Shown one piece after another: positions 13,116 to 19,316 of a stretch of DNA of 64,000 nt (the first letter of the stretch is position 1; the number at the start of each line of letters is the position of its first letter). The notes under the pieces were generated by a model, which was not told the origin of the DNA, ran no database searches, and saw only the letters and a list, made by a program, of their open reading frames with translations. A program made the position numbers and the translations under genes. The stretch comes from Pseudomonas lalkuanensis (GTDB taxonomy: Bacteria; Pseudomonadota; Gammaproteobacteria; Pseudomonadales; Pseudomonadaceae): NCBI RefSeq assembly GCF_008807375.1, contig NZ_CP043311.1, positions 4,134,001 through 4,198,000 on the forward strand, read 5' to 3'.

Positions 13116-13157
13116 GTTCCCCATCGAGCTGCGACTAGGCTGAATACATGGTTTTCC

Positions 13158-13254
13158 TGTGGGGGCGAATTCATTCGCTATGCAGACCGCAGGTCTGCCT
13201 GGAGCATCCAGGGGCGGCTACGCCGCCCATCGCGAATGAATTCACCCCCACAGA
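13158..13254. repeat. REP/BIME-like repeat, copy 3 (about 97 bp)
   Basis: TGTGGGGGCGAATTCATTCG and its inverse, CGAATGAATTCACCCCCACA, bracket an inner GC hairpin (GGGGCGGCTACGCCGCCC). It fills most of the gap before the MBL-fold gene. Confidence 0.85.
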
Positions 13255-13303: not shown

Positions 13304-14029
13304 ATGAAAATCGTCAGCCGCGACCAGTGGTTCGAAGTCGAGCACCGCTACGACGGCATCAGCCTGATCAGTGAGCCATTCGTGCGGCCCTTCTACCGCT
13401 GCAACCTCTGGCACGTTCAGGGCCGCGACAAGGACCTGCTGATCGACTCCGGCTCCGGCGTCGTCAGCCTGCGCGAACAGCTGCCCTGGCTCACCCAGCG
13501 CCCGCTGCTGGCGGTGGCCAGCCACACCCACTTCGACCATATCGCCGGGCATCACGAATTCCCCGAGCGCCTGGTCCATCCGGCAGAAGCGCACATCCTG
13601 GCCACGCCCACGGGCGAAAACACCCTGGCCAAGGACTATGTCGGCGACGAGATGTTCGAGGCGCACCCGGACTGCCCGCTGTGCTATGCCGAATACCGCG
13701 TGAAGGCGGCGCCGGCGACACGCCTGATCGATGAGGGGGATGTGCTGGACCTGGGGAATCGGGTGCTGGAGGTGCTGCATACCCCCGGCCATTCACCGGG
13801 CGGCATCAGCCTGTGGGAAGCGAAGACGCAGACACTGTTCAGCGGCGACATCATCTACGACGGCCCGCTGATCGATAACGCCTACCACTCGAATCTGGAT
13901 GATTACGCCAAGAGCCTCGCACGGCTGCGCGACCTTCCGGTGCGCACCGTGCATGGCGGTCACTTCGCCAGTTTCTCCGGTGAGCGCCTGCGCGAGTTGG
14001 CGGACAACTGGCTACGCGCTCACGAGTGA
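13304..14029 (+). CDS. MBL-fold metallohydrolase
   Basis: This 241-aa protein has the metallo-beta-lactamase fold signature HTHFDH at 74-79, followed by HTPGHSPGG and FSGDIIYDGP; these supply histidine and aspartate ligands for two metals, and a final HGGHFAS completes the site. Such proteins hydrolyse thioesters, lactones or phosphodiesters. The start is ATG 13304 with GGAG nine bases upstream; longer readings run back through the REP repeat. It lies between the symporter and the 45-aa gene, as PA1415 does in P. aeruginosa. The substrate is unknown. Confidence 0.85.
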   Translation: MKIVSRDQWFEVEHRYDGISLISEPFVRPFYRCNLWHVQGRDKDLLIDSGSGVVSLREQLPWLTQRPLLAVASHTHFDHIAGHHEFPERLVHPAEAHILATPTGENTLAKDYVGDEMFEAHPDCPLCYAEYRVKAAPATRLIDEGDVLDLGNRVLEVLHTPGHSPGGISLWEAKTQTLFSGDIIYDGPLIDNAYHSNLDDYAKSLARLRDLPVRTVHGGHFASFSGERLRELADNWLRAHE

Positions 14030-14034
14030 GCCGG

Positions 14035-14172
14035 TCACTTCCTCAGGCGGCGCTGCTCGGCGAGGCGGCGCTGCTCTTCACTCCGGACCGGAATGGGCTG
14101 CAGGCGCGGTGCCTCGATCAGGCCCAGCGCGACACCCAGTTGCCACATCCACGCTTCTAGCCGCTTTCTCAT
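14035..14172 (-). CDS. 45-aa protein downstream of an Anr-type promoter (PA1414-like)
   Basis: This small ORF encodes 45 residues starting MRKRLEAWMWQLGVALGL and ending in an Arg/Glu/Gln-rich tail (SEEQRRLAEQRRLRK). The amphipathic N-terminal half could bind a membrane. A run of five G lies eight bases before the ATG. The gene sits between an MBL-fold gene and a LysR/MFS pair, the position of PA1414 in P. aeruginosa as I recall. Upstream in-frame Met codons reach 14256, but the predicted transcript starts at about 14254, so ATG 14172 is preferred. The function of the peptide is unknown; the leader RNA may be the active product. Confidence 0.65.
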   Translation of the reverse strand: MRKRLEAWMWQLGVALGLIEAPRLQPIPVRSEEQRRLAEQRRLRK

Positions 14173-14254
14173 GCTTGACCCCCTTTCCTGGGACGATGGT
14201 CGGGTGGCCCGTGCTTCTTGGGCCACCCTCGTCAGGAGCTTAGTTGCTCCGGGC
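14173..14254 (-). ncRNA. Candidate SicX-like structured 5' leader / small RNA
   Basis: The leader between the predicted start of transcription and the 45-aa ORF holds two perfect stem-loops. GGAGC-AACTAA-GCTCC lies at 14235-14250. GGGTGGCCC, a 9-base loop and GGGCCACCC lie at 14202-14228. The second stem could act as a terminator or processing point and leave a short RNA of about 50-80 bases. In P. aeruginosa the PA1414 locus yields the oxygen-responsive small RNA SicX, as I recall. Identity here is inferred from position, the Anr box and structure, not from an alignment. Confidence 0.55.
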
Positions 14255-14261
14255 AAGATCC

Positions 14262-14302
14262 AAAATACGCCCGCCCTGAAATTTCCTACTGATCTGAATC
14301 AA
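14262..14302 (-). promoter_or_regulatory. Anr/FNR box with spaced -10 element
   Basis: Read on the minus strand, 14302-14289 is TTGATTCAGATCAG, which matches the Anr/FNR consensus TTGAT-N4-ATCAA at every position but the last. A -10-like TATTTT lies at 14267-14262. Transcription starting at 14254-14255 would put the box centre near -41, the class II activator position, so low-oxygen induction is predicted. Confidence 0.8.
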
Positions 14303-14480
14303 ACCGCTGAACGGTATACGGGAAACGTCTTACCGGAGGATCGCCGCTTACTTACTGAAACTTCAGTGCAATTGCCGATGTATCTCACTTCATTCAACAC
14401 TGACCAGGAACTTCCCCGTAGGGCGCGCCGTGCGCACCGAAACCCTGCGAACCGGTCCACAAACGAATCCAGATTCGCTC

Positions 14481-15350
14481 TTACGACGCCTGGGACCGCC
14501 CCTGCTGCAGGTCGATCCAGGCCCGCAGGTTCGCCCCGAGCATGCCCTTGCGCCACATCAGCCAGGTGGTGGCGCGGTTGAACGGCGCGTCCAGCTGGTG
14601 AACCCGCACTTCGTCCCGTCCCGGCAGGCTATCGAGCATCGAGCGCGGCACCAGGGCGATGCCGCCCCCGGCGATCACGCAGGCCAGCATGCTGTGGTAG
14701 GACTCGATTTCCATGGGCGGCGCCATCGGCACTCGCGAGGCCACGAACCAGCCCTCCAGGCGACGGCGATAGGAGCAGCTCTGGCGGAAGGCGAACACCT
14801 CCAGCCCGGCCACGTCCTGTGCCGACTTCACCGGCCCATGGGCGGCCTCGGTGATCAGCACCATTTCCTCCTCGAACAGCGGCAGACCATCCAGCTCGGC
14901 GAACTCAACCGGACCATCCACCAGGGCGGCATCCAGGCGGCCACCGAGCAGGCCATCGAGCAATTCACCGCTGGGTGCGGTCTGCACCTGCAGGTTCACC
15001 GCCGGCCAGGTGCGGTGGTAGCGCACGAGAATGGGCGGCAGGTGGATGGCGGCGGTGCTGAACATGGAGCCGATGACGAAATCCCCCGCCGGCTCACCAC
15101 CGCGCAGGGCAGCCTCGGCCTCGGCCTGCAGGGCGAACATGCGCTCGGCGTAGCCCAGCATCACCTTGCCCGCCGGTGACAGGGTCAGGCGCTGGCGTTC
15201 ACGGAGAAACAGCTCCACGCCCAGACTCTCCTCCAACTGCCTGAGGCGCGTGGACAGGTTCGACGGTACCCGGTGCATGCGCGACGCCGCGCGGGTGATG
15301 GAGCCTTCCTCGGCCACGGCCTGGAAGATGCGGAGCTGGCTGAGTTCCAT
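14481..15350 (-). CDS. LysR-type transcriptional regulator
   Basis: This 289-aa protein has a LysR helix-turn-helix (about 3-60, with SITRAASRMHRVPSNLSTRL) and a C-terminal effector domain. It is divergent from a YbfB/YjiJ-type MFS gene with a 109-base AT-rich gap holding a palindrome, so it probably controls that exporter and itself. PA1413/PA1412 in P. aeruginosa show the same pair, as I recall. The start ATG directly follows the shared promoter region. The effector is unknown. Confidence 0.85.
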   Translation of the reverse strand: MELSQLRIFQAVAEEGSITRAASRMHRVPSNLSTRLRQLEESLGVELFLRERQRLTLSPAGKVMLGYAERMFALQAEAEAALRGGEPAGDFVIGSMFSTAAIHLPPILVRYHRTWPAVNLQVQTAPSGELLDGLLGGRLDAALVDGPVEFAELDGLPLFEEEMVLITEAAHGPVKSAQDVAGLEVFAFRQSCSYRRRLEGWFVASRVPMAPPMEIESYHSMLACVIAGGGIALVPRSMLDSLPGRDEVRVHQLDAPFNRATTWLMWRKGMLGANLRAWIDLQQGRSQAS

Positions 15351-15459: not shown

Positions 15460-16665
15460 ATGCCACCGCTGATCCGCCTGATGGCCTGCCTGTTCGCCCT
15501 GATCGTCGCCATGGGTGTCGGTCGCTTCGCCCTGACTCCGCTGCTCCCACACTTGATCGCCGAAGGCCAGGTGAGCCTTACCGGTGCCGGCCTGGTAGCC
15601 GCCGCCAACTACCTGGGCTACCTGGTGGGAGCCCTGGACGCTTTCTATGCCAGCTCCCCGCGACAGGCACGGCTACGTCTGGTGGCGGGGCTCTGGGCCA
15701 CCGTCCTGCTGACCCTGGCTTCCGCGCTGGCCGAAGGCTTCTGGCCCCATGTGCTGCTGCGTTTCGCCCTGGGGGTGACCAGCGCCTGGGTGCTGGTGGT
15801 GGTCACCGGCCTCAGCCAGCGCATCGCCGCAGAGGCCAACAGGCCCCGCCTGGGCAGCCTGGTATTCGCCGGCCCCGCCTTCGGCGTGATGCTGACCGGC
15901 GCGCTGGCCCTGGAGCTGAACCTGCAAGGCCAGGGTTCGGCCATGCTCTGGCTGGCCTTCGGCGTTCTGGCCCTTCTGCTGACCCTGGCTACCCATCCGC
16001 TGCTGCCCCATCCGCAAGCGCCAACCGTGACGACGATCCAACCCGTCCCACGGCGACCGCGCTCCCTGTATGCGCTGCTCGCTGCCTATGGCCTGGTGGG
16101 CCTGGGCTACATCATCCCCGCCACCTTCCTTTCGCAGATGGCTGCGGCGCGCTTCCACGGTCAATGGCAGGCGGACCTGTTCTGGCCGGCCTTCGGCCTG
16201 GCGGCAGCCATCGGCGTGGTGTTGGTCAGCCTGCGCCGCCAGCGGCCCGGTGGCACTCGCCGCTGGCTGGTGGTCGCGCTGTGGTTACAAGCCTTGGGCA
16301 CCCTCGCCTGCACCCTGCCGGGCATGGCCGGATTGGTTCTGGGGGTGATCCTAAGCGGCGGCCCCTTCCTCGCCGGGATGCAACTGGTGATGCAGTACGC
16401 CCGCGAACTGGACCCGCAGGGCCATAGCCGTAACGTCGGCCTGCTGACCGCCGCCTTCGCCCTCGGGCAACTTGCCGGCCCGCTGCTGGCGGCTGCCAGC
16501 AGCCATTTCAGCGGCGATCTGCAACCGGCACTCTATGCGGCCGGCGCGGGGCTGCTCCTGGCGGGTGCCCTGATGGCGCGTCCGGGCGCCAACCCTGCCG
16601 GGGCGAACTCATTCGCCAAGCAGGACGCAGTCCTGCCCTGTGGGAGCGAATTTATTCGCGAATGA
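15460..16665 (+). CDS. YbfB/YjiJ-family MFS transporter
   Basis: This 401-aa protein has about twelve transmembrane helices and the family opening MACLFALIVAMGVGRFALTPLLP. The start is ATG 15460; earlier in-frame codons run into the divergent LysR gene. Members are putative drug or metabolite exporters. The final residues, after GALMARPGANPAGA, are encoded by a REP repeat that also supplies the stop codon (...GSEFIRE-stop). The native C-terminus has therefore probably been extended by about 20 residues. Substrate unknown. Confidence 0.85.
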   Translation: MPPLIRLMACLFALIVAMGVGRFALTPLLPHLIAEGQVSLTGAGLVAAANYLGYLVGALDAFYASSPRQARLRLVAGLWATVLLTLASALAEGFWPHVLLRFALGVTSAWVLVVVTGLSQRIAAEANRPRLGSLVFAGPAFGVMLTGALALELNLQGQGSAMLWLAFGVLALLLTLATHPLLPHPQAPTVTTIQPVPRRPRSLYALLAAYGLVGLGYIIPATFLSQMAAARFHGQWQADLFWPAFGLAAAIGVVLVSLRRQRPGGTRRWLVVALWLQALGTLACTLPGMAGLVLGVILSGGPFLAGMQLVMQYARELDPQGHSRNVGLLTAAFALGQLAGPLLAAASSHFSGDLQPALYAAGAGLLLAGALMARPGANPAGANSFAKQDAVLPCGSEFIRE

Positions 16666-16732
16666 ATTCGTTCCCACAGGAAATGCAAAAGGGCCGCAGC
16701 GCGGCCCTTCGCGAATGACTTCGCCCCCACAA
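16639..16732. repeat. REP/BIME-like repeat, copy 4, overlapping a gene end
   Basis: Two REP palindromes (GTGGGAGCGAATTTATTCG... and ...TTCGCGAATGACTTCGCC) flank the hairpin GGGCCGCAGCGCGGCCC. The first unit encodes the tail and stop codon of the MFS gene. Confidence 0.85.
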
Positions 16733-18997: not shown

Positions 18998-19207
18998 GAA
19001 CACCCACTCATGATGCATTTGCAGGATTGCATCACCAATCCGAAACGTCCGACCCCCCAACCGCATTGCCGTCCTACAAAGTCCTTGGGCAGCATCCGGC
19101 CTCGTTGCAGCTTCTGTCGCGACCCGGGCTGGAACCCCGGCAGTAAACCGGTACTACCCCATAGGCAGAACCAAAGGGCCCTCGCCCCTCGGCTTCTGGC
19201 CGTCTAT

Positions 19208-19284
19208 GGCGGACGGTGCAAGGCGGGCATTCGCCCGGCCGGTTTTCTGTGTTTCCCGGTGGTTCCAACCTTGCACAGTCCGCC
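19208..19284 (+). other. Structured inverted-repeat element (possible phage immunity-type RNA)
   Basis: GGCGGAC-G-GTGCAAGG at 19208-19223 pairs with CCTTGCAC-A-GTCCGCC at 19269-19284: fifteen base pairs with one mismatch. Inside is a second perfect hairpin, CGGGC-ATTC-GCCCG, at 19224-19237. The element precedes a BRO-like ORF. The pattern resembles RNA elements seen near P4/ash-type phage regulatory genes, which is only a tentative resemblance. The rest of 18998-19207 holds no gene I can support. Confidence 0.45.
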
Positions 19285-19316
19285 ACCCCTTCAGGAATTC
19301 CAGGTGGCGGCCCTCA

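What the first reader, a model, noticed from the sequence alone, without database searches (positions are those of the whole stretch)
14035..14302. Anr-controlled structured leader and 45-aa gene: candidate SicX/PA1414-type locus
The sequence shows an Anr/FNR box (13 of 14 consensus positions) placed near -41 from a predicted start, a leader with two perfect stem-loops (5-bp and 9-bp stems), and then a 45-codon ORF with a G-rich ribosome site. Gene order around it matches the PA1415-PA1414-PA1413 interval of P. aeruginosa as I recall, where the oxygen-responsive small RNA SicX is made. If correct, this is a homologue outside P. aeruginosa, and the RNA, the peptide or both may act in low oxygen.
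Basis: partly seen in the sequence, partly recalled or inferred. Interest (0 to 1): 0.75.

Follow-up and report, generated by a model that had tools for sequence, protein, structure and literature searches.

The report
PA1414/SicX locus outside Pseudomonas aeruginosa
This is an environmental Pseudomonas version of the gene region that makes the low-oxygen regulatory RNA SicX in P. aeruginosa; it keeps a likely oxygen-sensor switch and a conserved tiny protein but not the part of the RNA thought to act on ubiquinone genes, which suggests the tiny protein, or another RNA target, is the older function.

Summary
On the minus strand: an Anr/FNR box (14289-14302, 9 of 10 specified bases) centred -41.5 from a predicted start at 14254; a leader with perfect 5-bp and 9-bp stem-loops; a 45-codon ORF (14035-14172). 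The ORF matches NCBIfam PA1414_fam (78.4 bits, cut-off 28), and the PtrR/LysR-PA1414-MBL order matches a P. aeruginosa-lineage genome. So this is an orthologue of PA1414/sicX, which was reported in 2023 as restricted to P. aeruginosa. PA1414_fam passes its cut-off in 295 of 398 Pseudomonadaceae genomes drawn and is under purifying selection.

It is not shown to be a working SicX. A model of P. aeruginosa-group leaders finds the window leader (30.8 bits) through hairpin 2 and the start region, not the seed hairpin. Here I found no pairing with the ubiU leader above chance, no Anr box upstream of ubiU and no leader terminator. UbiU is missing from 16 of 18 genomes of this genus, all with PA1414. 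In the P. aeruginosa group an 18-nt SicX stretch is invariant in 24 of 24 leaders, 5 from genomes without UbiU; 1 of 19 genomes with UbiU pairs at p < 0.05. Best reading: an Anr-driven small-protein mRNA whose leader became SicX in the P. aeruginosa line.

The parts
14289..14302 (-). Anr/FNR box TTGATTCAGATCAG, centre at -41.5 from the predicted start
   Evidence: position kept in 11 of 14 orthologous loci
14262..14267 (-). -10-like hexamer TATTTT
   Evidence: Sequence; read by eye, not found by the sigma-70 scan
14254..14254 (-). predicted transcription start (G)
   Evidence: Inferred from box spacing; no transcript data
14173..14254 (-). structured leader, homologous to the SicX/PA1414 leader in hairpin 2 and the start region
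14235..14250 (-). hairpin 1, GGAGC-AACTAA-GCTCC; stem invariant and loop nearly invariant in 14 loci
14202..14228 (-). hairpin 2, 9-bp stem, changes on both sides at 3 pairs; no U-tract after it
14179..14186 (-). ribosome-binding region AAAGGGGG
   Evidence: low divergence
14035..14172 (-). 45-aa PA1414-family small protein gene
   Evidence: NF041729 78.4 bits; pN/pS 0.24
14481..15350 (-). upstream neighbour: LysR-type regulator matching PtrR (place of PA1413)
   Evidence: NF047711 450 bits, cut-off 400
13304..14029 (+). convergent downstream neighbour: MBL-fold hydrolase (place of PA1415)
   Evidence: PF00753

Best explanation
This is the orthologue, in the genus that holds P. resinovorans, of the P. 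aeruginosa PA1414/sicX locus. Most likely it is an oxygen-controlled mRNA: when oxygen falls, Anr binds the box at 14289-14302 and switches on transcription from about 14254 (inferred); the short, strongly folded leader shapes stability or translation (inferred); and a 45-aa PA1414-family protein is made (coding conservation shown, product not). The protein has a hydrophobic first half and a basic tail (net charge +6), so I expect it to sit at the membrane or to bind RNA or another partner; that step is a guess. SicX is the P. aeruginosa-lineage form of the same leader, where a different first hairpin carries the seed, a terminator-like hairpin 2 precedes the peptide gene, and ubiU has an Anr box and a pairable leader. 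In the window's organism none of these three was found, so it should not activate ubiUVT the way SicX does.
For: PA1414_fam match 78.4 bits against cut-off 28; family above cut-off in 295 of 398 Pseudomonadaceae genomes drawn. Purifying selection: pN/pS 0.24, 0.31, 0.31 and 0.14 in four clades, while the two shifted frames give 1.1 to 4.5. Gene order: MBL in 14 of 14 and PtrR in 13 of 14 orthologous loci, both in the P. aeruginosa-lineage locus L104. Anr box kept at a fixed place in this genus and in the P. aeruginosa group. A model of 24 P. aeruginosa-group leaders finds the window leader at 30.8 bits, E 3.1e-6 in 305 kb, and all 14 leaders of this type (E-values are rough). Seed and target not kept here. 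Terminator-like hairpin 2 in the P. aeruginosa-lineage locus but in 0 of 14 leaders of this type.
Against: Hairpin 1 is more conserved than a mere stabiliser needs: stem 0.000 and loop 0.024 pairwise difference, against 0.245 at fourfold sites of the MBL gene and 0.164 at those of the peptide gene; that looks like an RNA with a partner. Published tests found the P. aeruginosa growth phenotype to depend on the RNA and not on the annotated reading frame (PMC10247376, section 7). The Anr box alone is within chance for 64 kb. No expression, binding or protein data exist here. No post-stop terminator was found in the 14 loci of this type, so the transcript end is unknown. The terminator-like signal in the P. 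aeruginosa-lineage locus is itself a weak test (shuffles give 0.3 on average).
Confidence: 0.72

Rival explanations
1. The leader is a stand-alone trans-acting sRNA in this genus too, with hairpin 1 (loop AACUAA) as a genus-specific seed for a target other than ubiUVT; the peptide is a second product of the same transcript.
For: Hairpin 1 is nearly invariant in 14 loci, loop included; no second exact copy of its core in 8 genomes. The homologous P. aeruginosa leader is an sRNA by genetics and northern blot (PMC10247376).
Against: A terminator-like signal follows hairpin 2 in 0 of 14 leaders of this type. The hairpin core at one mismatch gives 6 other places in 8 genomes (4 for the reversed control); none are orthologous to each other. 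The loop has only 6 nt.
Confidence: 0.3
2. True SicX homologue that activates ubiUVT by base-pairing.
For: Orthologous locus, Anr box, leader homology; this genome does hold UbiU (549 bits, cut-off 440) and an adjacent second U32 gene in the place of UbiV.
Against: Pairing with own ubiU leader p 0.63 and 0.89; no Anr box upstream of ubiU; ubiU lies 45 nt behind a MoeA-like gene; 13 of 14 genomes with this leader lack UbiU; seed not conserved.
Confidence: 0.05
3. Chance: a random short ORF behind a random palindrome.
For: A box of this quality is expected 0.43 times per window.
Against: Family match, selection, synteny and position-conserved box.
Confidence: 0.01

Closest known systems
SicX sRNA / PA1414 of Pseudomonas aeruginosa (PMC10247376)
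   Same: Same gene order, Anr box near -41.5, two-hairpin leader, hairpin 2 and start region homologous, same peptide family downstream.
   Different: First hairpin and loop differ; leader about 25 nt shorter if the starts are placed alike (inferred); no terminator-like tail after hairpin 2; no pairing above chance with own ubiU leader; ubiU not preceded by an Anr box; 13 of 14 genomes with this leader have no UbiU.
PA1414 family protein (NCBIfam NF041729; PF28105 as a label)
   Same: 45-aa ORF scores 78.4 bits over positions 1-42 of the 43-position model.
   Different: Nothing outside family variation; no function is given in the libraries searched.
ubiUVT Anr-controlled leader
   Same: ubiU is present elsewhere in this genome.
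   Different: Here ubiU follows a MoeA-like gene with a 45-nt gap and no Anr box; a box with at most 1 mismatch precedes ubiU in 16 of 16 loci read from two other genera.

Membership tests
PA1414 family protein (NF041729) | score above the curated cut-off | tested here: met
   78.4 bits, cut-off 28
PA1414 family protein (NF041729) | under coding selection | tested here: met
   pN/pS 0.24 in 14 orthologues; shifted frames 1.19 and 1.34
PA1414/sicX locus | between PtrR/LysR (PA1413) and MBL (PA1415) | tested here: met
   the two flanking locus numbers are recalled, the order was tested on L104
SicX sRNA | Anr box driving the transcript | tested here: met
   Box and spacing present and conserved; binding and expression not tested
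SicX sRNA | sequence and structure homology of the RNA | tested here: inconclusive
   Model R1 30.8 bits, but aligned only at hairpin 2 and the start region
SicX sRNA | conserved loop (taken as the seed) GCGGAGAGTGGGACGCCG | tested here: not met
   Invariant in 24 of 24 P. aeruginosa-group leaders, absent here; the published seed letters were not seen
SicX sRNA | pairs with the ubiU 5' leader | tested here: not met
   p 0.63 and 0.89 against shuffles; accessibility not modelled
SicX sRNA | intrinsic terminator inside the gene | tested here: not met
   Found in L100, not in the window
SicX sRNA | short RNA abundant in low oxygen, Hfq-independent | not testable with these tools
   No RNA data

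The most novel reading that the evidence does not exclude
PA1414 is an ancient dual-function locus of Pseudomonadaceae: a conserved small protein found through most of the family, and an Anr-controlled leader RNA in the P. aeruginosa and P. resinovorans groups, whose loop has a conserved partner that is not ubiUVT. The ubiUVT activation known as SicX is a late addition in the P. aeruginosa line, where a terminator arose ahead of the peptide gene. The main target of SicX is then still undiscovered.
Probability: 0.37. Interest if true: 0.78.

Novelty: new variant of a known kind. Interest (0 to 1): 0.6.

Why it matters
SicX was described as restricted to P. aeruginosa and explained through ubiUVT. 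Here the locus is found across the family at the protein level, and the 18-nt SicX stretch is invariant in 24 leaders of the P. aeruginosa group, although only 1 of 19 genomes with UbiU pairs with its ubiU leader at p < 0.05 and 5 of the 24 have no UbiU. Named species outside P. aeruginosa with the stretch include P. nitroreducens, P. citronellolis and P. jinjuensis. That makes two questions testable in environmental species: what the 44-45-aa protein does, and what the conserved RNA loop pairs with. It also suggests that the annotated PA1414 start (234 bp) lies 33 codons upstream of the conserved start.

Tried and rejected
Whole-length duplex prediction between leaders and ubiU leaders was uninformative: it pairs almost end to end and ignores internal folding. 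It was replaced by seed-only duplexes, which also ignore accessibility. There 1 of 22 comparisons reached p < 0.05 (the P. aeruginosa-lineage genome, p 0.018); that would not survive correction by itself and counts because the pairing was predicted from the paper. Five near-identical ubiU leaders (G107, G139, G186, G086, G076) came close, p 0.075 to 0.084, with duplex energies of -27.3 against -28.2 kcal/mol in the P. aeruginosa-lineage genome, through a GC-rich hairpin; so pairing in those species is not excluded. After this recheck I lowered the novel reading from 0.40 to 0.37.

Search for another target of the P. aeruginosa-group loop: the exact 12-mer complement in 12 genomes gave 45 places (28 forward, 17 reverse), 12 of them the sicX loci themselves, against 22 for the reversed control pattern. 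Thirty of the 45 had loci; 11 of these, from recurring groups, were looked at and 10 could be read: all lie inside long open frames, none in an evident leader. The exact 10-mer loop complement in 3 genomes gave 13 places, 3 of them sicX; the other 10 were read and none recurs between genomes. One (L225, genome G121) lies a short way ahead of a GAGGAG and an ATG, a single unreplicated candidate. The window hairpin core at one mismatch in 8 genomes gave 14 places: the 8 loci themselves and 6 others (4 for the reversed control), not orthologous to each other and in or beside long open frames.

A third hairpin hiding the window's ribosome site appears in the 137-nt fold but has no covariation support. 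Rfam at E up to 1 found nothing at the locus. The Pfam-A copy gave no match for the peptide. Two leader terminator-like hits in L117 and L122 span hairpins 1 and 2 in another register; I do not count them as hairpin-2 terminators. The U-tail after hairpin 2 in L105 (G121) is as U-rich as in G143, but the terminator scan did not report it.

Full report
What is there. On the minus strand of 14035-14302 lie an Anr/FNR-type box (TTGATTCAGATCAG, 14302-14289), a -10-like TATTTT (14267-14262), a leader from about 14254 with two perfect stem-loops (14250-14235 and 14228-14202), a G-rich ribosome site (14186-14179) and a 45-codon ORF (14172-14035). The box is the only match with at most one mismatch in the window, but 35 of 100 shuffled windows also have one. 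The 84-nt leader folds better than all but 1 of 200 shuffles; the leader plus 53 nt of the ORF is less remarkable (10 of 200). No sigma-70 promoter or intrinsic terminator was found in 13950-14480 by the simple scans.

Family. The ORF matches NCBIfam NF041729, PA1414 family protein, at 78.4 bits (cut-off 28). The upstream LysR gene matches PtrR (NF047711, 450 bits, cut-off 400) and the convergent downstream gene is an MBL-fold hydrolase. In 14 orthologous loci of the same genus, the window's own included, the MBL gene is present in 14 and PtrR in 13; a P. aeruginosa-lineage locus (L104, genome G143) has both, at 83% and 72% identity. The names PA1413 and PA1415 are recalled; PA1414 is borne out by the family name and.

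Names. By matching contig lengths, the window's genus includes P. resinovorans (G004, L029), P. otitidis (G002, L038) and P. alcaligenes MRY13-0052 (G001, L047). G143's peptide is 98% identical to a protein named 'PA1414 family protein [Pseudomonas aeruginosa]', and a 77-aa P. aeruginosa protein (P0003) begins with 33 residues identical to the translation of G143's leader apart from the start residue. 33 + 44 codons plus stop gives 234 bp, the length the SicX paper gives for PA1414. So the annotated start lies in the SicX region, 33 codons upstream of the start that the family model and the conservation support. G143's contig length also equals the length I recall for strain PA7; that is recall only.

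Protein evidence. NF041729 is above cut-off in 295 of 398 Pseudomonadaceae genomes drawn; 340 of 398 have some match at E up to 0.1, which includes weak ones. All 18 genomes of the window's genus in that draw match at E 1e-17 or better. Nonsynonymous to synonymous difference ratios are 0.24 (14 loci), 0.31 (24), 0.31 (15) and 0.14 (19; one of 20 loci dropped because no ORF was recognised by the script), while the shifted frames give 1.1 to 4.5. This is good evidence that the small protein is translated and kept. The SicX paper reported no homologues in other Pseudomonas species, keeping blastn hits with more than 90% identity and coverage; I read that as a threshold effect.

RNA evidence. Hairpin 2 of the window type has changes on both sides at 3 of 9 pairs, one cell each; hairpin 1 does not vary. 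Hairpin 1 stem and loop differ by 0.000 and 0.024 per site between genomes, against 0.245 at fourfold sites of the adjacent MBL gene and 0.164 at those of the peptide gene. In the P. aeruginosa group the stretch GCGGAGAGTGGGACGCCG is invariant in 24 of 24 leaders; the 25th genome of that group, G150, has a PA1414 family match but no leader match. Among 39 named loci, 11 hold that stretch (P. citronellolis, P. pseudonitroreducens, P. nitroreducens, P. delhiensis, P. jinjuensis, P. nicosulfuronedens and strains without a species name) and 7 hold the window-type hairpin 1, one of them with one changed base. A covariance model built from the 24 leaders finds the window leader at 30.8 bits (E 3.1e-6 over 305 kb) and all 14 leaders of this type; next come L016 and L017 at E 0.025, and no named Stutzerimonas, luteola-type or g27 locus is below E 4 (calibration was short, so E-values are rough). 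The reverse model finds the P. aeruginosa-lineage leader at E 1.2e-4. The alignment shows that the match rests on hairpin 2 and the start region; the first hairpin is not aligned.

The ubiUVT link. The window genome's UbiU and G143's UbiU pass NCBIfam's UbiU cut-off (549 and 547 bits, cut-off 440). UbiU orthologues (at least 79% identity, well apart from paralogues at 37% or less) occur in 2 of 18 genomes of the window's genus and 19 of 25 of the P. aeruginosa group, and in 17 of 28 further genomes that I chose for having PA1414 family matches. Thus the locus persists without UbiU: 13 of the 14 genomes with the window-type leader lack it, and so do 5 of the 24 genomes with the invariant SicX stretch. 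Seed-to-leader duplexes were tested in 21 genomes with UbiU (22 comparisons): only G143 beats its shuffles at p < 0.05 (z -2.5, p 0.018), pairing at -52 to -31 where the leader's stem hides the ribosome site, as the paper describes; five near-identical leaders reach p 0.075 to 0.084; the window genome gives p 0.63 and 0.89. The published seed letters are in a figure I could not see, so taking my invariant stretch as the seed is an inference. An Anr box with at most 2 mismatches lies within 1500 nt upstream of ubiU in 2 of these 21 genomes, G143 and G002, but one with at most 1 mismatch lies within 120 nt in 16 of 16 loci read from g27 and g28 (a 17th genome with UbiU had no locus). So Anr control of ubiU looks ancestral and lost in the window's genome and in 18 of the 19 P. 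aeruginosa-group genomes with UbiU. In the window genome ubiU starts 45 nt behind a MoeA-like gene (MoeA model 378 bits, below its cut-off of 440).

Termination. Hairpin 2 in the P. aeruginosa-lineage locus is followed by a U-rich tail and scores as a terminator (shuffles give 0.3 on average), in line with the paper's terminator inside PA1414 (section 6 figure legend). None of 14 window-type leaders does. In the P. aeruginosa group 15 of 24 loci have a terminator-like signal within 80 nt after the peptide's stop, while G143 has none there. This fits, without proving, a history in which a small-protein mRNA became an early-terminated sRNA.

Anr control across the family. A box with at most two mismatches is found in 12 of 14 window-type loci and 22 of 24 P. 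aeruginosa-group loci, against about 4% of shuffles; in 0 of 3 otitidis/alcaligenes-type loci (two have one with 3 mismatches at the same place), 3 of 15 Stutzerimonas loci (shuffles 3.7%; all about 215 nt before the ATG), 0 of 3 luteola-type loci and 7 of 19 g27 loci (shuffles 11%, places scattered). So a box at a fixed place is seen in only part of the family, while the protein is wider spread.

Literature. I read sections 6, 7 and 8 and searched passages of PMC10247376; figures and supplements were not seen. I saw passages of PMC12300143 (where the hits were other locus tags) and PMC12274486. Searches for SicX or PA1414, alone or with homologue, small-protein or family terms, of which I saw listings, showed no report of the locus outside P. 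aeruginosa or of the peptide; the library holds openly licensed PMC papers only.

Judgement. It is not evidence of a ubiUVT-activating SicX in this organism. The most interesting residue is the pair of near-invariant loops without a known partner.

Noticed in passing
19202-19290: C4 antisense RNA (RF01695) at 73.2 bits, E 2.2e-12, the only Rfam hit in the window at gathering threshold.
   Followed up: no
13157-13253 and 16637-16731: Similar palindromic repeats around TGTGGGGGCGAATTCATTCGC, arms of 22-26 nt, at two places in the window.
   Followed up: no
L015 (P. otitidis), L016, L017 (P. alcaligenes type): Same peptide but different leaders: a CGGAA-TTCCG first hairpin, and by eye no hairpin 2 in L015.
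   Followed up: partly
L104-L127: Within the roughly 1.5 kb held on each side, PtrR is found upstream only in G143 among 24 P. aeruginosa-group loci, while MBL is found in 23 of 24; six others show different upstream genes.
   Followed up: partly
L131-L149: 18 of 19 P. aeruginosa-group ubiU loci have no Anr box within 1500 nt upstream; many have a GC-rich hairpin just ahead of ubiU.
   Followed up: partly
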